Source of the DNA: a virus
Strand: one strand, 5' to 3'
IMG/VR virus record: IMGVR_UViG_3300050821_005417
Coordinates: 1 to 20,804 of that record
DNA length: 20,804 nucleotides
The notes beneath the pieces were generated by a model, which worked only from the letters and a program-made list of their open reading frames with translations, was not told the DNA's origin and ran no database searches. The first letter of the stretch is position 1, and every line of letters begins with the position of its first letter. Below are positions 3,778-19,605 of this stretch, one piece after another. The position numbers and the translations under genes were made by a program.

Positions 3778-3854
3778 TCGTGTTGACATTGGCTGCCATC
3801 GCAGTCTGTGCGGTCTTGATTGTTTGGGAATTTATTAACGAGGTTTTGACGTGA
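3738..3854 (+). CDS. 38-residue single-pass membrane peptide
   Basis: Starts at ATG 3738 after GAGGCAGG and ends in a TGA that overlaps the GTG start of the TadE-like gene. Residues 11-30 form one strong transmembrane helix (EAMIVLTLAAIAVCAVLIVW) flanked by charged residues. It has the size and shape of other tiny phage membrane proteins; a holin is possible, but one helix and no lysin next door make that weak. Its place directly before a pseudopilin-like gene suggests a shared envelope role. Confidence 0.5.
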   Translation: MWKRISDLFVEAMIVLTLAAIAVCAVLIVWEFINEVLT

Positions 3855-4249
3855 AAATCACAAAACGACTGAAAGATGAAAGAGGGCAGGCGATTCTGGA
3901 GGCAGCGGTCATGCTACCAGTGTTGATTTTTGTAGCACTGGCAATGATCGACATCCAGGTTGCCGAAAGTACAGCAGGAAGTCTGAACTACGTGGTCACT
4001 GAGGCAGCGCGTTGCGAAGCGATTGCAGGACTGCCGTGCAATTCTCCGAACAATGCCGGCCTCTACGCGAATCAACTGGCTTACAATCTCAGACTTCGGA
4101 ACGGATTCACGGTCGCATCTTACGGATGCGATGTGTTGTCCGGCTCATGCACGATGGTTGCTTCGTACTCGTACAAGCCGCTCGGCGTGTGGTTTCCGCA
4201 GATGATAATCACGCGAACGGGGACGGCTTCACTCAAGACTGGAGGGTAA
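3851..4249 (+). CDS. TadE-like pseudopilin-type protein
   Basis: 132-residue protein with the N-terminal signature of the TadE family, minor pseudopilins of the tight-adherence (Tad) pilus. The charged start (KITKRLKDE) is followed by RGQAILEAAVMLPVLIF, a hydrophobic helix to about residue 35. Gly12 with Glu17 five residues on matches the prepilin-peptidase pattern G|xxxxE, and the later VVTEAARCEA fits the conserved helix after the membrane segment. Four cysteines in the C-terminal half (including GLPC, YGCD and GSC) could form disulfides outside the cell. The GTG start overlaps the previous stop. No other tad genes are visible. Phage carriage of TadE is unusual. Family call good from the N-terminus; the rest is not diagnostic. 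Confidence 0.72.
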   Translation: MKITKRLKDERGQAILEAAVMLPVLIFVALAMIDIQVAESTAGSLNYVVTEAARCEAIAGLPCNSPNNAGLYANQLAYNLRLRNGFTVASYGCDVLSGSCTMVASYSYKPLGVWFPQMIITRTGTASLKTGG

Positions 4250-8875: not shown

Positions 8876-9133
8876 ATGAAGAAATGCACGGCACTGCTGA
8901 TTCTCGCGCTTAGTATCAAGGCTTCAGCGGTGGACCAGAAATCGTTGCTGCTAGGCATTGGAATCGGTTTAGGCATGTCGGCCTATCAGGGAACGCGAAG
9001 CAAGGTATTGTTGCCAACCGCGCATTTTATTCAGCGCACGGTGCGACCGATACCACAGGACAAGATCGAAAAAGCAAAGAGAAAGGCGGCGAAGGCGGCG
9101 CGGAAGCGGGTTGGTACGCCAGTAGCTGAGTGA
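8876..9133 (+). CDS. small unknown protein with signal peptide
   Basis: 85-residue protein starting [18 protein letters not shown], a good Sec-type signal peptide with likely cleavage after ASA, then a second short hydrophobic Gly-rich stretch ([14 protein letters not shown]) and a very basic tail ([16 protein letters not shown]). The tail could bind nucleic acid or anionic lipids. Its stop overlaps a GTG in the cold-shock frame. Function unknown. Confidence 0.6.
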
Positions 9134-9144
9134 AAGCGGAGCAC

Positions 9145-9363
9145 ATGGAAGGTACGCGCATCACAGGAACTGTAGCGTGGTTTAACGGGGCCAAGGGATA
9201 CGGATTCATCCGATGGCAGGGTGGTAGAGACGTATTCGTTCACTTTTCAGCAATTCAAATGGACGGCTACAAGGATCTCAAAGAGAATGACGAAGTTGAG
9301 TTCGAGGTAACGGACGGCCCCAAGGGCAAGCAAGCTGCGAATGTTCGACGGCTGGAAGATTGA
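9145..9363 (+). CDS. csp: cold-shock domain protein
   Basis: 72-residue single cold-shock domain protein, the usual CspA length. It shows the canonical start [19 protein letters not shown] containing RNP1 (KGYGFI), RNP2 as DVFVHFSAI, and the closing [17 protein letters not shown]. It would bind single-stranded RNA or DNA and melt structure in transcripts. ATG 9145 is chosen over GTG 9130 because CGGAG sits just upstream and cold-shock proteins start close to this point. Phages sometimes carry csp genes; here it sits among small accessory genes. Its end abuts the next gene by 1 nt. Confidence 0.93.
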
Positions 9364-11346: not shown

Positions 11347-11949
11347 ATGGCTACAAGTACTAGCAGTGCAGAAGAAAAGCGTACGAAAGCGTACGAAAAA
11401 AGCAAAATAAAAGAACAGGCCGCTCAACTCTTAGCTGAGGACAGGTTGAGCGACGAAAAGATCGCCGAGAAACTGGATATCGGGCGGACAACATTGTCCG
11501 AATGGAAGTTGCAACCGCAATTTGCTGCGAGAGTAAAAGCGATTGTAGATGCTCATGCTGAACGCGCTATGCACTATGGGTTGGCGCGCAAAGAGAAGCG
11601 TATCCAGGTTCTCAATGATCTCCACGGAAAGATTCTGCAAGTGATTGAAGAACGCGCTCTTGATCCAGAACTGGCAAAGATACCAGGTGGCAAGACGGGC
11701 ATCGTCACCAAAATGCTTAAGGGAATCGGGCATGGCGACGACTTTCAAATTGTCGAGGTCTACGCGATTGACACGGCTGCGCTCAAGGAGATTCGCGCCA
11801 TTCAGGATCAAGTAGCACAGGAACTTGGCCAGAAGGTGGAGAAGTATGAGCACGACTTCACTTCGGACGCACGCGAGAGACTTATCGCAGCACTCGATTG
11901 CGGATCGAATACGCGAACTGCCCAAGGCGAAACGCAAAGCATTAATTAA
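11347..11949 (+). CDS. terS: terminase small subunit
   Basis: 200-residue DNA-recognition subunit of the packaging motor. A helix-turn-helix is visible at about residues 28-60 (AQLLAEDRLSDEKIAEKLDI, then RTTLSEWKLQPQF), the classic arrangement for small terminases, followed by helical oligomerisation-like segments. It lies directly upstream of, and overlaps by 104 nt, the large subunit, which is the main support for the call. The N-terminus is Lys/Glu-rich. The ribosome site is weak. The last ~35 residues are encoded in DNA shared with the next gene and are polar. Confidence 0.75.
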   Translation: MATSTSSAEEKRTKAYEKSKIKEQAAQLLAEDRLSDEKIAEKLDIGRTTLSEWKLQPQFAARVKAIVDAHAERAMHYGLARKEKRIQVLNDLHGKILQVIEERALDPELAKIPGGKTGIVTKMLKGIGHGDDFQIVEVYAIDTAALKEIRAIQDQVAQELGQKVEKYEHDFTSDARERLIAALDCGSNTRTAQGETQSIN

Positions 11950-13396
11950 TCAACTCAGCGACAAGGAAGCTGAGGAACTGTGCTACGACTGGAAATTCTG
12001 GGGACGCGCAACGCAGCAAATCCCGCTTACGGACTGGTCTACGTGGCTGGTAAAAGCTGGACGTGGATTTGGCAAGACAAGATGTGGGGCTGAGACAGTA
12101 AGAGAGTGGATTAAGCACTTTCCAATCGTAAATATTGTCGGGCCGACAGCGGGCGATATTCGCGATGTGATGGTCAAAGGACCGAGCGGCATTCTCGCGG
12201 TATGTCCAAAGGCAGAACGTCCGGTATATCTGTCGTCGGACAGGCAGTTGCGATGGCCGAATGGGAATGTGACGCTCTGTTTCTCGGCAGAGGAACCAGA
12301 ACGACTTCGCGGCCCGCAACATTACAAACTGTGGTGTGATGAATTAGCAGCATGGCGCTATCAGGAAGAAGCATGGGACTTGGCCATGTTGGGATTGCGC
12401 TTAGGGAGCAATCCGCAAGTAGTGGTCACGACCACTCCGAAACCAACGAAGTTAATTAAGCTTCTACAGAACGACCCCACAACATATGTGACGCATGGTA
12501 CGACCTACGAAAATAGGCCGAACTTAGCGCCGAAGTTTTACTCGCACATCATCACGAAGTACGAGAACACTAGGCTTGGCAGGCAGGAACTCCTCGCCGA
12601 AGTTTTAGATGACAACCCCGGCGCTTTGTGGACTCAATCAGCGATCGACCGGGACCGCATCAAGATAGTGCCGGAACTGGTCCGGGTAGTCGTGGGTGTG
12701 GACCCAGCGGTGAGTGCAAACGAGGATTCCGATCTCACTGGCATCGTAGTAGCAGGACGAGGACGGGAGCACCCTCCACACTATTACGTACTTGATGATC
12801 TCAGCCTGCTTGGTTCGCCGAACGAATGGGCGGAAAAAGTCAACCTTGCTTATCGTACGCATAAAGCAGACCGCGTGGTAGCAGAGGTAAACAACGGTGG
12901 CGATTTAGTCGAAGCAAATCTGCGGACGAAAGATATCCAGTTCGCGTACAAAGCGGTACATGCAACCCGCGGCAAGATTATCCGAGCGGAACCTATCGCG
13001 GCACTCTATGAGCAAAAGCGTGTGCATCATGTAGGTATGTTCGCAAAGTTGGAAGACGAGATGTGCGACTTTAATCCGCAATCGTCTACAAAGTCGCCCG
13101 ACAGGATGGATGCGCTTGTGTGGGCGTTGGCTGAATTGAGTGAGGGTGCGGATGGGTTCGAGTTATTTTTGGCGACGAGCAGCGAAAATGCAAAGCGGCT
13201 GGCACCTCCACCGAACCCGCAAGAGATTGGCGGGGGATTGATACTGGGATCGGCGATGGTAACGGTTCCAGCGGTTGTACCGGGAACGGTGACAGTGAAC
13301 GAGGCTGTAGTAGTTCCCGGCGAAGCGGCGCGGGAGAAGGTTCAACCTTTTACGGACCCATACAGCCTGCTTAAGCGTGCCGCGAGATCGAAATGA
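11846..13396 (+). CDS. terL: terminase large subunit
   Basis: 516-residue packaging motor with ATPase and nuclease domains. Walker A is LVKAGRGFGKTR (about residues 62-73), Walker B with catalytic glutamate is LWCDELAAW (about 163-171), and the coupling motif lies in VVVTTTPKPT. The RNase H-like nuclease shows VVGVDPAVSANEDSD (first acidic site), AEVNNGGD in the middle and SPDRMDALVWAL with the late Asp. The ATG at 11846 has GGTGGAG just upstream and is inside terS; a TTG at 11825 is less likely. The C-terminal ~70 residues are Pro/Val-rich and probably flexible. It overlaps the next gene by 4 nt. Confidence 0.95.
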   Translation: MSTTSLRTHARDLSQHSIADRIRELPKAKRKALINQLSDKEAEELCYDWKFWGRATQQIPLTDWSTWLVKAGRGFGKTRCGAETVREWIKHFPIVNIVGPTAGDIRDVMVKGPSGILAVCPKAERPVYLSSDRQLRWPNGNVTLCFSAEEPERLRGPQHYKLWCDELAAWRYQEEAWDLAMLGLRLGSNPQVVVTTTPKPTKLIKLLQNDPTTYVTHGTTYENRPNLAPKFYSHIITKYENTRLGRQELLAEVLDDNPGALWTQSAIDRDRIKIVPELVRVVVGVDPAVSANEDSDLTGIVVAGRGREHPPHYYVLDDLSLLGSPNEWAEKVNLAYRTHKADRVVAEVNNGGDLVEANLRTKDIQFAYKAVHATRGKIIRAEPIAALYEQKRVHHVGMFAKLEDEMCDFNPQSSTKSPDRMDALVWALAELSEGADGFELFLATSSENAKRLAPPPNPQEIGGGLILGSAMVTVPAVVPGTVTVNEAVVVPGEAAREKVQPFTDPYSLLKRAARSK

Positions 13397-13572
13397 AACT
13401 GGGATGGAAGATGGCGCTAAGGGATGCCGAGGAAGGCATTAAGAGAGCAAGCCGGGAACTAGCGGACTGGAAGGCTGTGGCTGCGATATGCCGCAGGAGA
13501 GTAGCGCAGCGAGCTGCATGGCCTGGTGAGGTTGCGATAGTGCATAAGGAGAAGGGCAAGGAGAAACCATAA
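13393..13572 (+). CDS. small basic protein
   Basis: 59-residue basic, helical protein with its ATG overlapping the terL stop (ATGA) and its TAA overlapping the next ATG (TAATG). It reads KLGWKMALRDAEEGIKRASR, then AICRRRVAQRAAW, and ends in Lys/Glu repeats. Its high Arg/Lys content suggests nucleic-acid contact. The two tight junctions make it credible. Function unknown. Confidence 0.55.
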   Translation: MKLGWKMALRDAEEGIKRASRELADWKAVAAICRRRVAQRAAWPGEVAIVHKEKGKEKP

Positions 13573-15542
13573 TGCGAGCGTTCAGGTGGGCAGCTTTAAT
13601 TATTCTACTGACATCAATCGCGACGGCGCAGCAAGTTCCGGCAACGATGTTTGGGATGAACGTGCATCCGCAGGTTATCGCCACGCGGAACGCGATACCT
13701 TGGCCGACGATTCCAATCGGCGCATTTCGTTTCTGGGGAACTGAGACAACGTGGAGTGCCATGAATCCCTCGAACGGCGTGTACAACTTCGACACGATGG
13801 ATGCATGGTTTGCAGCGGCGGCAAAGAATGGCGTGACGGATTTCCTGTACACATTTGGCGAGACGCCGGCATGGGCTGCTGGACCTCCGATGACTCAATC
13901 ATGCGACCACTACCCAGGATCGTGCAACGCGCCCAAGGATCTGAATGCGGACGGCACGGGGCCAGATCAAATCTGGAAGGACTTCGTTACGGCAGTTGTG
14001 AAGCACGCGAACGGACGTATCAAGTATTGGGAAGTGTGGAACGAACCCGACATCGGAATCGAGTGGACGCCGACGAATCCGCAGATGCCCTACGCACAAC
14101 TGATTCGCATGGCAAAGGACGCTTACGCAATCATCAAGGCGAATTGTCCGACTTGCCAAGTAACTACGCCGTGCCCGGTCGATTCAGGGAAGGGCCAGAC
14201 TATCGGCAATTGGCTACCTAGCTATGTGAAGGCGGGCGGCCTGCAATATGCGGACATCATCGCATTTCACGGCTACATTGATTCGGCACTCGGCCAGAAG
14301 CCCGAAGCGGAAGCGGGAAAGGTGGCGACGATCAAAGTGGCGATTGGAAACAGTCCCAAACCGATATGGGACACGGAAGGCAATTGGGGTAACGATAGCG
14401 GATTGCCGAACGCGCAACTGCAGGCTGCATATCTTGCACGGATGTATCTCATGCAATGGTCGGTCAGCGTGCAAAGATTCTACTGGTGGCAGTACGGGAA
14501 TTCAGAGATGGGTACGCTTGTCACTAACGGGACGCTAACCTCATCCGGCACAGCCTATGCAGAACTCAATAAATGGATCGTTGGCAGCACGATGACCAAG
14601 CCGTGTATGAACACAGGAACGGTCTGGACTTGCAGTTTCCATATGGCGAACGGCGTTCAGTCGATGATCGTGTGGGACGCTGGACAGACTTGCGCTACCA
14701 CAAACTGTGGGCAAACGCAGTGGAGTTATCCGGTAGGCTACACGGCGTCAGCTACGCTGGCGGGAGTGAACGCGAAACTTAGCGGTGGCAAAGTGGGGAT
14801 TGGTGCGGCGCCGATTCTCCTCATGGGCAGCACTCCGTTGGGCAACTTCCCGCGGAATGCATCAAAGGCCAGCGGTGGGCAAAAGAAAGTTCTCTTCATC
14901 AATAAGGCATCTCATTCACAGGCAAAAGCGAGTGTTGCAAAAACCGCTGCAAGTGGACCGGATATTGTTAACCTTTCGTGGATATGCTCCACGTCATCGA
15001 ATGCGCTCAGTTACAACGTCTATCGCAACACAGCCTCGACTGGCGCATTTACTTTAATCGGCAGCACGGGTACGAATGCGTGCGCCTACACCGACTCTGC
15101 AACGGCCTACGGTGCGAGTTATTACTATGCGGTGACTGCATCGAATGTGGCAGCTGGTGCTTCATGTCCAACAGGACAGACTTGCGAGAGTAGTCAAGAT
15201 GGACCTGTGGGACCAGCCGTGATTCCTGGGCCACCTCCGCCTCCAGTTCCAAACCCTCCGACCGGATTGCAGATCGTTTCAATTGTCGCGAAGAATGTGA
15301 CGCTCAAATGGAACGCGCCAGCCGCGCAAGCAGGAGTGACGGAGGTTTCGGCGAACGTTTACATGTGTCACGAGTCAACTTGTCCAGCGCCACCGCTAGT
15401 CGCGACTGTGACGGGGACGACATACACCGGGAACTGCAATTACTCAACTCGGCAGTGCTGGTTCATTGTGAAAGAGAACACAATCATTGCTGGCAAGAAA
15501 GTGTTGAGTGCGGCGTCGAATACCGTGGCCGCAAAAGTGTGA
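13572..15542 (+). CDS. secreted glycoside hydrolase (clan GH-A-like) with fibronectin-like domains
   Basis: 656-residue protein with a Sec signal peptide (residues 1-19, ending ATA) and a TIM-barrel glycoside hydrolase of the retaining GH-A kind, closest in feel to GH39/GH5-like enzymes. YWEVWNEPD gives the acid/base Glu158 and IWDTEGNWG the nucleophile Glu269; RFWGTETTW and AFHGY (His233) fit substrate-site strands. About 111 residues separate the two glutamates. After the barrel come fibronectin type III-like segments (about 460-525 and 565-656), separated by a Pro-rich linker (GPPPPPVPNPP). Substrate cannot be read from sequence; plant or microbial cell-wall polysaccharide is likely. It sits in the packaging-head module between terL and portal and has a good ribosome site (AAGGAG, 13558-13563). 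It may be a virion-associated depolymerase or an auxiliary metabolic gene. Many cysteines suggest extracellular disulfides. Confidence 0.8.
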   Translation: MRAFRWAALIILLTSIATAQQVPATMFGMNVHPQVIATRNAIPWPTIPIGAFRFWGTETTWSAMNPSNGVYNFDTMDAWFAAAAKNGVTDFLYTFGETPAWAAGPPMTQSCDHYPGSCNAPKDLNADGTGPDQIWKDFVTAVVKHANGRIKYWEVWNEPDIGIEWTPTNPQMPYAQLIRMAKDAYAIIKANCPTCQVTTPCPVDSGKGQTIGNWLPSYVKAGGLQYADIIAFHGYIDSALGQKPEAEAGKVATIKVAIGNSPKPIWDTEGNWGNDSGLPNAQLQAAYLARMYLMQWSVSVQRFYWWQYGNSEMGTLVTNGTLTSSGTAYAELNKWIVGSTMTKPCMNTGTVWTCSFHMANGVQSMIVWDAGQTCATTNCGQTQWSYPVGYTASATLAGVNAKLSGGKVGIGAAPILLMGSTPLGNFPRNASKASGGQKKVLFINKASHSQAKASVAKTAASGPDIVNLSWICSTSSNALSYNVYRNTASTGAFTLIGSTGTNACAYTDSATAYGASYYYAVTASNVAAGASCPTGQTCESSQDGPVGPAVIPGPPPPPVPNPPTGLQIVSIVAKNVTLKWNAPAAQAGVTEVSANVYMCHESTCPAPPLVATVTGTTYTGNCNYSTRQCWFIVKENTIIAGKKVLSAASNTVAAKV

Positions 15543-16249
15543 CAAGGCAACACAAGAAGCGGACGGTCTGGCAAAGGGTTCGGGATGCCGCCCGCAAGAA
15601 ACGGCCGTTAAGGCTGAGCGCAAGTGAGACCATCGAGTTATCTTCTGTAGTGGTCCCCTTCGCGAATCTTGCCGACAGTGCTACACAGAAGTGGCGGCAA
15701 GAAAATAGGCGGGCTTGGTTCAGGGAAAGGAAACAAGCCAAAGCATCGACCGGTCCTATTTGGCCGCAGCTGAGCGGTAAGGTAGCGGAAGTCTGCGAGT
15801 TGTTATGCAGGGGGATGCATCTAGATAAGATTGCAGTTGCACTGAGGTTGCCTCGTACGACAGTAGGCAGCAGGCTGGCAGAAGCATATAGAATCGCGGG
15901 AATATCGGATGGCAAACAAAAAGAGGTCGCGTTGGCAGTGCTGCTTACTTATGAGCGTCATCCTGAGTTGCGCCCTCGCGACGGGATGCGCTGCGAAACG
16001 GAACACGGCGTCGCAGTCGATGAAACCATCAACTACAGCCATCCCTATCCCAACCGTCCAACCGGAAGCAACCGCATTGCCGGCCCAGTCTTCTACTGGA
16101 CCCAAGCTCCTGCCGATCTGCAAGGGCGGACTGCTGTCGCAACACGCGAACGCGGCGGAGATGATTGCATACCAAGCGAAGTATTCGACGGAAGGATGCC
16201 GATGGATGGCTCCGCCAAGATGTCCGACGAACTGGAAACCGCAATATGA
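15539..16249 (+). CDS. LuxR/GerE-type helix-turn-helix protein
   Basis: Up to 236 residues from a GTG that overlaps the hydrolase stop (GTGTGA). After a very basic N-terminus (RQHKKRTVWQRVRDAARKKR), residues about 75-135 read as a LuxR-type DNA-binding domain: LSGKVAEVCELLCRGMHLDK, then IAVALRLPRTTVGSRLAEAY. There is no receiver or ligand domain, so it would be a bare DNA-binding regulator, perhaps of late genes. The last ~113 residues overlap the lipoprotein gene in another frame and look unstructured, so the true C-terminus may be nearer 15960-16000 if there is a frameshift. The start is uncertain because no ribosome site is obvious. Confidence 0.6.
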   Translation: MTRQHKKRTVWQRVRDAARKKRPLRLSASETIELSSVVVPFANLADSATQKWRQENRRAWFRERKQAKASTGPIWPQLSGKVAEVCELLCRGMHLDKIAVALRLPRTTVGSRLAEAYRIAGISDGKQKEVALAVLLTYERHPELRPRDGMRCETEHGVAVDETINYSHPYPNRPTGSNRIAGPVFYWTQAPADLQGRTAVATRERGGDDCIPSEVFDGRMPMDGSAKMSDELETAI

Positions 16250-16268
16250 AGGGCAGTGTACGCCATGA
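15909..16268 (+). CDS. Pro-rich lipoprotein overlapping the HTH gene
   Basis: 119-residue protein with a lipoprotein-type leader: MANKKRSRWQ, hydrophobic CCLLMSVILSCALATGC, with Cys27 as the likely lipidated residue. The mature part is Pro/Thr-rich (TTAIPIPTVQPEATALPAQ), then has four more cysteines. Its 3' end overlaps the next ATG (ATGA), which supports it. The first 341 nt lie inside the HTH ORF in another frame. The overlapping, Pro-rich outer-membrane lipoprotein recalls Rz1 spanins, but the host ORF lacks the membrane helix of Rz. Function unknown. Confidence 0.6.
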   Translation: MANKKRSRWQCCLLMSVILSCALATGCAAKRNTASQSMKPSTTAIPIPTVQPEATALPAQSSTGPKLLPICKGGLLSQHANAAEMIAYQAKYSTEGCRWMAPPRCPTNWKPQYEGQCTP

Positions 16269-16519
16269 ACATACCGCCAGCGGGGTTGATTGAAAGCGCT
16301 GTGGATCAGATTGATCCGAACGGAAAGCCTGAGAAAGATGAGGCTTCGGAATTGGTCTCTGCGATTGGCGGAGCCACGGCAACGAAACTCGGAATTAATT
16401 TTCCGCTTTCACCTGAGTTCATGAAAGGCTATCAGATTGGTTTGCAGGTAGCGCGTCAAATGCTTGCAGGCAGTATGGAACTGGCGGTTAAGGGAATTAA
16501 TCCCGAGATTCTTCTGTAA
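16265..16519 (+). CDS. small unknown protein before portal
   Basis: 84-residue protein from ATG 16265 in an ATGA overlap with the lipoprotein stop; a GTG at 16256 is the alternative. It is Ala/Gly/Ile-rich with amphipathic helices (ELVSAIGGATATKLGINF; YQIGLQVARQMLAGSMELAV). No signal peptide or metal motif. Position suggests a head or neck accessory, but that is only context. Confidence 0.55.
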   Translation: MNIPPAGLIESAVDQIDPNGKPEKDEASELVSAIGGATATKLGINFPLSPEFMKGYQIGLQVARQMLAGSMELAVKGINPEILL

Positions 16520-16531
16520 AAGGAACTACGA

Positions 16532-18256
16532 ATGGCGCGAGGTTTAGTCCAAGACGGGTTCGGCAAGGCGACTCCAATCAGCCGTGGCTTGTTTGAGCGG
16601 TTCACGGACGGAGTGAACGCGCAAATTTCCAGCTTGGACCCGATGGCATGGATGGGGCCGTCGCAACCGATGGCGAGAGTTGCGCCGCGCGGAACGCAGC
16701 CTAGAATCTATGATTACCGCTTCGGACAGAACATCGACTACACGCCAAAGGCGTTTGAAGGTTATTGCTACGAGGTTCTGCGTGACCTCGCAGATGGCTA
16801 CAGTCTGCTTCGTTCGGTAATTGAAACACGCAAGGATCAAGTATCGCGGGTGCCGCACAGTTTCAGTGTCAGAACGTTGCCGGGTGAGCCGCCAAGCAAA
16901 AAGAAGGAACGGCAACTTAACGACAAGCGCATCGCGAAGTTGGAAGACTTTTGGTCAAAGCCGGACGGGCAGCATAGCTTTTCGGACTGGCAACGGCTCA
17001 TCCTCGAAGACCTGTTTGTCATTGATGCGGCCTCGATTGTTCCGAGATGGCGGAGGGATGGCGGAGTCTACGGCTTCGACGTGATTGATGGAGCCACGAT
17101 CAGTCTGTTGGTCGATGAAACTGGTCGTTCGCCGATGCCTCCCGACCCGGCCTATCGGCAGATCATCAAAGGAATGCCAGCGGTGGACATGATGATCCCG
17201 ACAGCGTCCATCAAGAAGTCGGACGCACTGTTCTTTTACCCGCGGAACGTGAGGCCGTCAAGACTCTACGGCTTCTCGCCAACCGAGCAGCTCGTACTTA
17301 TTGTGAACATCGCGCTACGCCGTCAGATGCATCAGCTTCAGTGGTATACGGATGGGACAATCCCCGACGTATTTCTCGAAGCACCAGATGGATTAAGCGA
17401 AGAACGCATGACGCAGTTCGAGGCGATCTGGAATGAAAAGTTCGCCACAACGCAAGCGCGGCGCAAAGCGAACTTCGTGCCCTTTGGAACCAAGGTCACC
17501 TTCGCAAAAGACCCGAAGCTGAAAGACGAGATGGACGAGTATCTTGCACGCATGGTCGCGTACTGTTTTAGCGTTTCGCCGACAGCATTAGTCAAGACCA
17601 CGAACCGCGCAACGAGTCAGCAGTTGAGCGACGATGCAAGGGCAGAAGGCCTTGAACCGATTCTGTCTTGGTTCAAAGAGATCATGGACGATTTGCTTGC
17701 GTTCATGGGCTGCGCGGATATTGAGTATGAACTCGGGTCGAGCAATCGCGAGAATCCGCTAGTTCAGGCCCAAGTTTGGCAGATTCTTTTGAGCACGGTG
17801 GATGACCAAGGCCACAGCCCGATGCGGGCGCCAGAAGTCCGAGAAGAGTTGGGCTTGGAGCCCATCGACTACGAAGCTGAGGACGACGCGGCATTTGCGA
17901 AAGGTCTTGACCAGCAGAGCCAGCGCAATGCACTTCAGGCTGACAATCAGGAAGACATGATGAGGCGGCAGCAGCAAGTGCAGCACGCCGACGAGCCGCG
18001 ACCGAAGGCGGCACGGCTGGCAGAATGTCCGCTCTGTCGCAGCGGGATGAAAGTTGTAGGGCATAGCGGCGATACCGTGATGGGACCGCACCATGTAGAC
18101 ACAGACGGCACGGAATTGCTTTGCTATGCAACGCAAAAGGTACTCGGGACTCGTGCTCTAAAAAAAAAGTCTCAAAGCCTACACGCTACCGCGTCGAATC
18201 GGGCTCTCGTAGCGAACGGCATACACAGGCCTTTGTCCGCACGTCGAACTTACTGA
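16532..18256 (+). CDS. phage portal protein
   Basis: 574-residue portal that would form the dodecameric ring at the capsid vertex through which DNA is packaged. Typical features: an N-terminal clip of basic/Pro segments, YSLLRSVIETRKDQVSRVPH (early wing helix), the core ILEDLFVIDAASIVPRWRRD, the FFYPRNVRPSRLYGFSPTEQ segment that is characteristic of HK97-like portals, the helix IALRRQMHQLQWYTDGTIPD, and a C-terminal crown with Glu/Gln-rich helices. A good AAAAGGA site precedes the ATG. The tail is odd: a Cys/His cluster (CPLC near residue 498, then HH and a further Cys) and a run of nine A at 18160-18168, after which the frame codes only 28 residues with no portal-like character. The downstream MuF ORF is in the -1 frame, so a fused product is possible. 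Confidence 0.92.
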   Translation: MARGLVQDGFGKATPISRGLFERFTDGVNAQISSLDPMAWMGPSQPMARVAPRGTQPRIYDYRFGQNIDYTPKAFEGYCYEVLRDLADGYSLLRSVIETRKDQVSRVPHSFSVRTLPGEPPSKKKERQLNDKRIAKLEDFWSKPDGQHSFSDWQRLILEDLFVIDAASIVPRWRRDGGVYGFDVIDGATISLLVDETGRSPMPPDPAYRQIIKGMPAVDMMIPTASIKKSDALFFYPRNVRPSRLYGFSPTEQLVLIVNIALRRQMHQLQWYTDGTIPDVFLEAPDGLSEERMTQFEAIWNEKFATTQARRKANFVPFGTKVTFAKDPKLKDEMDEYLARMVAYCFSVSPTALVKTTNRATSQQLSDDARAEGLEPILSWFKEIMDDLLAFMGCADIEYELGSSNRENPLVQAQVWQILLSTVDDQGHSPMRAPEVREELGLEPIDYEAEDDAAFAKGLDQQSQRNALQADNQEDMMRRQQQVQHADEPRPKAARLAECPLCRSGMKVVGHSGDTVMGPHHVDTDGTELLCYATQKVLGTRALKKKSQSLHATASNRALVANGIHRPLSARRTY

Positions 18257-19605
18257 GGCGGTTCTTTAAGCGGTGCCAGGCGAAGCTGGTGGCGATTGCA
18301 AAGGAAGTCCCATCGCTTGCAGAGATACCAGAGGGATGGCACTTCTACGATCCCGAGAGCGGGGCGGAGTTGCCGAAGGTAGCTGCTGCGGACTTGCAAC
18401 GTGATCAGAGCCACATGGCTTGTGCGATGATTCGATTGCCAGAGGCTATCGCAGACGAAGTACTGGCGAAAGCAGCAACGCTGATTGCGGACGAGGATGT
18501 GACGGGCAAGGGACGTGAGGGCGAACCGCACATCACGTTAAAGTACGGGGTTAGAGAGAACGTAGGAGAGACGGCAGAAGCCCTCGCCGAGTTCTACCCC
18601 TTCGAGGTTGAGTTAGGCAAGACGGGAGTGTTCGCTCCAAACCAGAACACCGGAGGCGCGGCAGTAGTTTACGTGGAAGCAATCGCGCCAATCCTGAAAG
18701 AGTTGCACTCTAAGTTGAGCGACAGCATAGGCGTGCGGCACGATGGAGCGGATTACGTTCCGCATGTCACGTTAGCTTACGTGGACGCATCAAAGGCCGA
18801 CAATTACGATGGCTTAGATTCTTTCGCAGGCATGAAGTTCACTGCGAACGCAATTACGATCACGCGGGCCGAAGGGAAAGACTGGACCTTTGACTTGGGC
18901 GGTGCGAGTCTCGTATCCAAGGCTGGAGGCGACGAAGAGGACGAGGATATCGAGGAAATCATTCTCGACATCCTCAAAGGTTTCCAGGAAATCGTGCCTG
19001 CAATGCAACACGAATTGGAAGGCACGTATCTGGACCAGGCACGGCAGATGTCAACGGAGATGGAGAGCACGGTTCAGTTGTCAGTGCTGAATCAGCGGGC
19101 GTTGGATTACGCAAGAGCGCGTGCCGCTGAGATGGTCGGCATGAAGTGGGTAGAAGGCGAACTTGTCACGAACCCTAACGCGGTGTGGGCCATCACGGAC
19201 ACGACGCGGGATGTACTGAAGGATCTGATTACCAACGCCTTCACGCAAGGCCAGACGCCAGCGGAGTTGACGAGTTCGATTGAGCAGACGGGAATCTTTA
19301 GTGCGTGGCGTGCGGATATGATCGCATCGACTGAGATGTCCAAGGCAACGATTCAAGGTTCGTTGTCAACGGCCAAGGATGTTGGGGCGATTGGTAAGCA
19401 GTGGGAAACCAGTGGTGACCACGATCACGACGACGAGTGCGATGGAAATGAAGACGATGGAGTCATTGCGATTGAGGATAGTTTTAGCAGCGGGGATGAT
19501 GGACCGCCAGCGCACCCGTCTTGCAATTGCTCTCTGGTCTATATAACGGCAGACGATCCCGAGACCGCAGACCTACTGGAGCCAGAAACGGTGGAAGCGG
19601 AATAA
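18121..19605 (+). CDS. MuF-like head protein with embedded 2H phosphoesterase domain
   Basis: The frame is open across the end of the portal; the left coordinate is the furthest upstream possible start (TTG), and neither it nor a GTG at 18289 has a convincing ribosome site, so frameshifted translation from the portal is likely. The protein has two parts. First (about 18410-18915), a 2H phosphoesterase / LigT-like domain: two histidine motifs, HITLKYG and HVTLAYV, about 80 residues apart, act on 2',3'-cyclic or 2'-5' phosphodiester bonds. Second, a MuF-type head morphogenesis domain (about 18950-19560) with helices YARARAAEMVGMKW, TTRDVLKDLI, ADMIASTEMSKA, and the closing HPSCNCS motif. The acidic tract GDHDHDDECDGNEDDG near the end is unusual. 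MuF proteins assemble beside the portal and can be ejected with the DNA. Confidence 0.82.
   Translation: MLCNAKGTRDSCSKKKVSKPTRYRVESGSRSERHTQAFVRTSNLLRRFFKRCQAKLVAIAKEVPSLAEIPEGWHFYDPESGAELPKVAAADLQRDQSHMACAMIRLPEAIADEVLAKAATLIADEDVTGKGREGEPHITLKYGVRENVGETAEALAEFYPFEVELGKTGVFAPNQNTGGAAVVYVEAIAPILKELHSKLSDSIGVRHDGADYVPHVTLAYVDASKADNYDGLDSFAGMKFTANAITITRAEGKDWTFDLGGASLVSKAGGDEEDEDIEEIILDILKGFQEIVPAMQHELEGTYLDQARQMSTEMESTVQLSVLNQRALDYARARAAEMVGMKWVEGELVTNPNAVWAITDTTRDVLKDLITNAFTQGQTPAELTSSIEQTGIFSAWRADMIASTEMSKATIQGSLSTAKDVGAIGKQWETSGDHDHDDECDGNEDDGVIAIEDSFSSGDDGPPAHPSCNCSLVYITADDPETADLLEPETVEAE
18160..18214 (+). promoter_or_regulatory. A9 slippery site with downstream stem (candidate -1 frameshift)
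   Basis: In the portal frame the codons are CTA AAA AAA AAG (18158-18169), giving the A-AAA-AAG slippery heptamer. A -1 slip moves ribosomes from the portal frame into the MuF ORF. CGCTAC (18184-18189) pairs with GTAGCG (18209-18214) and could act as stimulator 14 nt downstream, slightly farther than the usual 5-9 nt. A homopolymer error in the assembly is the main alternative. Confidence 0.5.

What the first reader, a model, noticed from the sequence alone, without database searches (positions are those of the whole stretch)
13572..15542. Secreted glycoside hydrolase inserted between terminase and portal
A full-length enzyme with signal peptide, both catalytic glutamates (E158, E269) and fibronectin-like domains sits in the packaging-head block, where terL is usually followed closely by portal. 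It could be an auxiliary metabolic gene that lets infected soil bacteria attack polysaccharide, or a depolymerase for the host capsule. The Sec signal argues for export from the infected cell rather than virion assembly in the cytoplasm, which is the puzzling point.
Basis: partly seen in the sequence, partly recalled or inferred. Interest (0 to 1): 0.65.

Follow-up and report, generated by a model that had tools for sequence, protein, structure and literature searches.

The report
Phage-borne, exported PslG-like sugar-chain cutter
A probable soil phage carries, between two of its DNA-packaging genes, an intact exported enzyme apparently taken from an Acidobacteria-type bacterium, where some relatives sit beside genes that build surface sugar coats; it probably trims or dissolves the host's own slime late in infection.

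Summary
Window 13572-15542 is one 656-aa ORF: Sec-type signal peptide, GH-A (beta/alpha)8 barrel with E158 after strand 4 and E269 on strand 7, beta-sandwich, and a fibronectin-like tail. It is not a chimera: an independent 102.9-kb phage contig has terL-GH-HTH-portal with the GH 80% identical, and the catalytic region evolves under strong constraint (dN/dS 0.04).

The closest solved structure by profile, Foldseek and structural alignment is PslG (Z 32.7), the Pseudomonas enzyme that hydrolyses its own exopolysaccharide; E158/E269 align with PslG's E165/E276. Pfam GH39 is below cut-off. On the tree the gene lies inside an Acidobacteriota clade of mostly exported enzymes, apart from other phage GHs. 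Several chromosomal relatives are flanked by surface-polysaccharide genes.

The terL-portal interval is variable: near-empty (<200 nt) in 28 of 54 relatives, elsewhere holding a tail fibre, an M14 carboxypeptidase or unknown ORFs. In the window the GH is translationally coupled to terL, which suggests late expression.

Best reading: a captured, Sec-exported endoglycosidase that cuts host or biofilm polysaccharide around lysis. Substrate and purpose are inferred. Soil-virus GHs are known; this is a new variant.

The parts
11825..13396 (+). Terminase large subunit (terL), left border of the slot
   Evidence: Terminase_6N 1.8e-22 and Terminase_6C 1.2e-19; phrog_979 4.1e-34
13393..13572 (+). 59-aa small ORF; start overlaps the terL stop (ATGA) and its stop overlaps the GH start (TAATG), suggesting translational coupling
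   Evidence: sequence and translation
13572..15542 (+). Exported PslG-like GH-A glycoside hydrolase, whole ORF (656 aa)
13572..13631 (+). Sec-type signal peptide, residues 1-20 (MRAFRWAALIILLTSIATAQ)
   Evidence: scripted rule; hydrophobic core and ATA|Q retained in the sister phage although only 60% identical; many bacterial relatives also begin with export signals
13632..14579 (+). (beta/alpha)8 barrel, residues 21-336
   Evidence: AlphaFold2 strands 27-30, 51-54, 91-95, 152-155, 196-198, 229-235, 265-271, 300-306
14043..14045 (+). Codon of E158, predicted acid/base
   Evidence: invariant in 22 relatives; aligns with PslG E165
14376..14378 (+). Codon of E269, predicted nucleophile
   Evidence: invariant in 22 relatives; aligns with PslG E276
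14589..14831 (+). Beta-sandwich after the barrel, residues 340-420
   Evidence: PslG aligned over model residues 18-420
14916..15539 (+). Fibronectin-like tail, residues 449-656 (second domain less certain)
   Evidence: 42-58% identical to the sister tail and to two stand-alone exported proteins of another relative
15539..16249 (+). 236-aa ORF whose GTG start overlaps the GH stop (GTGA); possible helix-turn-helix protein
   Evidence: family match is below cut-off (HTH_40, E 0.062)
15909..16268 (+). Probable 119-aa lipoprotein (lipobox LATGC) in another frame of the preceding ORF
   Evidence: open and 79% identical in the sister phage; substitution pattern fits two constrained frames
16256..16519 (+). 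87-aa ORF of unknown function
   Evidence: 98% identical in the sister phage, not found in relative G001
16532..18256 (+). Portal protein, right border of the slot
   Evidence: Phage_portal 1.8e-14; phrog_2662 1.6e-50

Best explanation
A phage gene for a retaining endoglycosidase of the PslG kind, captured from an Acidobacteria-type bacterium and kept in a variable cargo slot of the late packaging-head operon. It is made late, exported by the host's Sec pathway, and cuts host or biofilm exopolysaccharide in the periplasm or, after lysis, around the cell, helping progeny to leave and spread or reach new cells; the fibronectin-like tail may hold it on the polymer. Shown by computation: the fold, the catalytic pair, purifying selection, placement on the tree and the slot. 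Inferred: late expression, export, substrate and purpose.
For: Fold and active site: profile best hit PslG 6e-18; Foldseek ranks 1-3 are PslG; PslG Z 32.7, 359 residues, 2.6 A; catalytic glutamates align. Functional gene: residues 21-420 are 94% identical to the sister copy with dN/dS 0.042, near the portal's 0.025. Origin: nested in a mainly Acidobacteriota clade (SH-aLRT 98), apart from other phage GHs. Substrate hint: relatives in L054, L062 and L067 lie beside polysaccharide deacetylase, glycosyltransferases, WecG/TagA/CpsF, sugar epimerase and Wzy_C genes. Export: signal-peptide pattern kept in both phages. Late expression: start and stop overlaps with the ORF after terL and with the next ORF. 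Slot: 54 relatives surveyed.
Against: No substrate was tested. PslG identity is only about 13-14% in structural alignment, and GH39 xylosidases share the fold. The neighbour evidence is uneven: a second set of loci gave mostly unrelated genes, no background rate was measured, and neighbours were chosen by hand. Overlapping genes suggest, but do not show, late transcription. The host is inferred from one gene tree and a terL relative in a Terriglobia-class genome.
Confidence: 0.5

Rival explanations
1. Auxiliary metabolic gene: the exported enzyme degrades plant or soil polysaccharide to feed the infected cell.
For: Virus-encoded glycoside hydrolases, one with confirmed endomannanase activity, are reported from permafrost peat (PMC6786970). 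GH39 and GH10/GH30 xylan enzymes share the fold.
Against: PslG and one GH39 structure (5jvk, Z 32.2) score clearly above the xylanases (Z up to about 27). Late-operon coupling leaves little time for feeding (inference). Some chromosomal relatives sit in polysaccharide-building clusters.
Confidence: 0.2
2. Surface remodelling against superinfection: the exported enzyme, perhaps with the lipoprotein encoded just downstream, alters the receptor polysaccharide so that further phages cannot adsorb.
For: A probable lipoprotein ORF is conserved next to the GH. A signal-peptide-bearing relative occurs in a phage contig with an integrase-like ORF (L025).
Against: Late expression fits exclusion poorly (inference). 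The lipoprotein is predicted only, and its frame overlaps another ORF.
Confidence: 0.15
3. Virion-associated depolymerase acting at entry.
For: In relatives the same slot holds a collagen-like tail fibre (L197) and proteins with a shared 40-55-aa N-terminal module and different C-terminal parts (L162, L164, L165).
Against: The window protein has an export signal and lacks that N-terminal module; no virion-anchor domain was recognised.
Confidence: 0.1

Closest known systems
PslG of Pseudomonas aeruginosa
   Same: GH-A barrel plus beta-sandwich, aligned over residues 18-420 at Z 32.7; catalytic glutamates correspond; signal peptide; PslG disrupts its own species' exopolysaccharide matrix (PMC7237758)
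   Different: About 13-14% identity in structural alignment; fibronectin-like tail added; phage gene, not part of a biosynthetic operon; substrate unknown
Glycoside hydrolase family 39 (beta-xylosidases and 5jvk)
   Same: Fold and catalytic pair; weak sequence similarity
   Different: Pfam PF01229 scores 13.6 bits against a cut-off of 26
Caulobacter phage Cr30 gp072, annotated beta-1,4 xylanase
   Same: Homologous phage GH, 28% identity over residues 1-395
   Different: No signal peptide or fibronectin tail; other genome position; falls outside the Acidobacteriota clade
Soil-virus glycoside hydrolases of Emerson et al. 2018 (PMC6786970)
   Same: Glycoside hydrolase genes on soil viral contigs
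   Different: The tested one is a GH5 endomannanase; GH39 and signal peptides are not mentioned in that paper's main text

Membership tests
Clan GH-A | (beta/alpha)8 barrel with acid/base after strand 4 and nucleophile at strand 7 | tested here: met
   AlphaFold2 model, barrel pLDDT mostly 70-97 with some lower loops; Foldseek and VIA-align matches
Clan GH-A | Conserved catalytic glutamates | tested here: met
   E158 and E269 invariant in 22 relatives
Clan GH-A | Retaining hydrolysis | not testable with these tools
   needs enzyme assay
GH39 | Pfam PF01229 score above the curated cut-off | tested here: not met
   13.6 bits against 26; sister copy 13.2
GH39 | Closest structures are GH39 or PslG | tested here: met
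   PslG Z 32.7 and GH39 5jvk Z 32.2, next rows about 27
PslG-like exopolysaccharide hydrolase | Catalytic residues equivalent to E165 and E276 | tested here: met
   assuming the chain starts at residue 27
PslG-like exopolysaccharide hydrolase | Gene lies in an exopolysaccharide cluster | tested here: inconclusive
   not so for the phage gene; seen for chromosomal relatives in L054, L062, L067 but not most of a second set
PslG-like exopolysaccharide hydrolase | Hydrolyses bacterial exopolysaccharide | not testable with these tools
   needs enzyme assay
Virion-associated depolymerase | Virion-anchoring N-terminal domain, no export signal | tested here: not met
   signal-peptide pattern at the N terminus; no phage structural family found

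The most novel reading that the evidence does not exclude
A phage lineage uses the terL-portal interval as an exchangeable slot for host-surface genes and there carries a hydrolase captured from its host's own exopolysaccharide machinery, exported before lysis so that each burst clears the surrounding matrix. Export before lysis, rather than carriage on the virion, would be a distinct depolymerase strategy.
Probability: 0.3. Interest if true: 0.65.

Novelty: new variant of a known kind. Interest (0 to 1): 0.45.

Why it matters
Glycoside hydrolases on soil viral contigs have been read as genes for plant-polymer breakdown. This one, by fold and by the neighbours of several chromosomal relatives, points instead to bacterial exopolysaccharide, which would change how such genes are counted in soil carbon budgets. 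It also shows that a fixed-looking phage interval is a variable cargo slot. The reading is testable by expressing one protein.

Tried and rejected
Chimeric assembly: rejected, because an independent contig has the same order. Own promoter for the GH: the pattern scan found no promoter-like site on the + strand in 13000-17000. The 306-aa slot protein of relative G001, suspected by eye to be a GH99-like enzyme: the AlphaFold2 model was poor (pLDDT 47) and Foldseek gave no match at E 0.001 or better, so unresolved. Fibronectin-like tail as a host marker: weak generic matches in 73 of 299 Terriglobia-class genomes, not informative. Portal as a host marker: relatives in 22 of 299 Terriglobia-class genomes, but Brevundimonas phages are equally close (36%), and no other bacterial class was searched as a control. 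Paper searches combining PslG with phage, and GH39 with soil viruses, listed no title or abstract on such an enzyme (the papers listed were not read). An o10728 codon comparison failed, possibly because the sister copy holds internal stops (not checked).

Full report
What is there. Window 13572-15542 (+) is a single 656-aa ORF. Left of it is terL and right of it, beyond two smaller ORFs, is the portal gene. A 59-aa ORF starts inside the terL stop (ATGA) and ends in the GH start (TAATG), and the GH stop overlaps the GTG start of the next ORF. I read this as translational coupling within the late operon. The pattern scan found no promoter-like site on the + strand nearby. Expression itself was not measured.

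What the protein is. No Pfam model reaches its cut-off on the single sequence. A profile of 22 phage relatives finds PslG first (6e-18) and then GH39 xylosidases. The AlphaFold2 model shows eight barrel strands, E158 after the fourth and E269 on the seventh, then a beta-sandwich; the tail is modelled poorly. Foldseek ranks PslG first; VIA-align gives PslG Z 32.7 and GH39 5jvk Z 32.2, with the next rows near 27. The sequence alignment puts E158 and E269 on the PslG catalytic pair. I place it in clan GH-A and call it PslG-like, but do not file it in GH39, whose Pfam test it fails.

Export and tail. The first 20 residues follow the signal-peptide pattern (a simple script). The sister phage keeps the core and cleavage motif although the stretch is only 60% identical. 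The tail has one well-supported fibronectin-like domain and probably a second. The same tail occurs as two stand-alone exported proteins in relative G001.

Selection and neighbours in phages. Between window and sister phage L001, residues 21-420 are 94% identical with dN/dS 0.042; the tail is 58% identical with 0.19; the portal halves give 0.025 and 0.026 (Nei-Gojobori, synonymous sites partly saturated). Relative G001, with a portal 80% identical, shows no match to the catalytic part and has a 429-aa and a 306-aa ORF in the slot. Among 54 portal loci with terL found upstream (window and sister included), 28 have a gap under 200 nt; others hold a tail fibre (L197), an M14 carboxypeptidase (L164) or unknown ORFs; the slot proteins of L162, L164 and L165 share an N-terminal module. 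Some rows are near-duplicates, and very large gaps may include other head genes.

Origin. In a tree of 68 rows the two phage copies fall inside a mainly Acidobacteriota clade (SH-aLRT 98), apart from the other phage GHs (quick search, several long branches). Many bacterial relatives begin with export or lipoprotein signals, as read by eye. Ten hand-picked neighbours in four loci (L054, L062, L067, L072) were all polysaccharide-type genes; ten more from other loci were mostly unrelated, with a Kdo transferase, a sulfotransferase and a GT4 among them. So the association is seen in some loci, but its frequency is not known.

Mechanism. The best reading is late synthesis, Sec export, and cleavage of host or biofilm polysaccharide around lysis. 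The metabolic, superinfection and virion readings stay open at lower weight. Novelty is moderate: viral glycoside hydrolases from soil are known (PMC6786970), while a Sec-exported, PslG-like enzyme in a variable terL-portal slot did not turn up in the paper searches made.

Noticed in passing
L001:12991-15876: The sister phage's portal ORF (961 aa) carries an intein-like insert absent from the window portal; LAGLIDADG_3 6.5e-7 and a weak Hint_2 match.
   Followed up: partly
18121-19605: Mu F-like head protein fused to an N-terminal 2'-5' RNA ligase (2H phosphoesterase) domain, with a match to anti-CBASS Acb1 just below cut-off; a similar fusion is seen by eye in a Terriglobia-class genome contig (L140).
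   Followed up: partly
15909-16268: Probable lipoprotein ORF overlapping another ORF in a different frame; substitution pattern suggests both frames are constrained.
   Followed up: partly
L012:10862-16479 and L019:17041-18147, 18154-19419: Both sister phages have three consecutive ORFs with signal-peptide-like starts just before the probable tail-tube gene; some look fibre-like.
   Followed up: partly
3851-4249: TadE-like pilus protein (PF07811, 1.8e-5) encoded in the phage window.
   Followed up: no
11825-13396: Only the last 82 residues of terL resemble the sister phage's terL, which suggests a mosaic junction inside the gene.
   Followed up: no
9130-9363: Cold-shock domain protein (PF00313, 1.2e-28).
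   Followed up: no
L162:5385-7343, L164:4908-6521, L165:1657-3063: Proteins in the terL-portal slot share a 40-55-aa N-terminal module followed by different C-terminal parts.
   Followed up: partly
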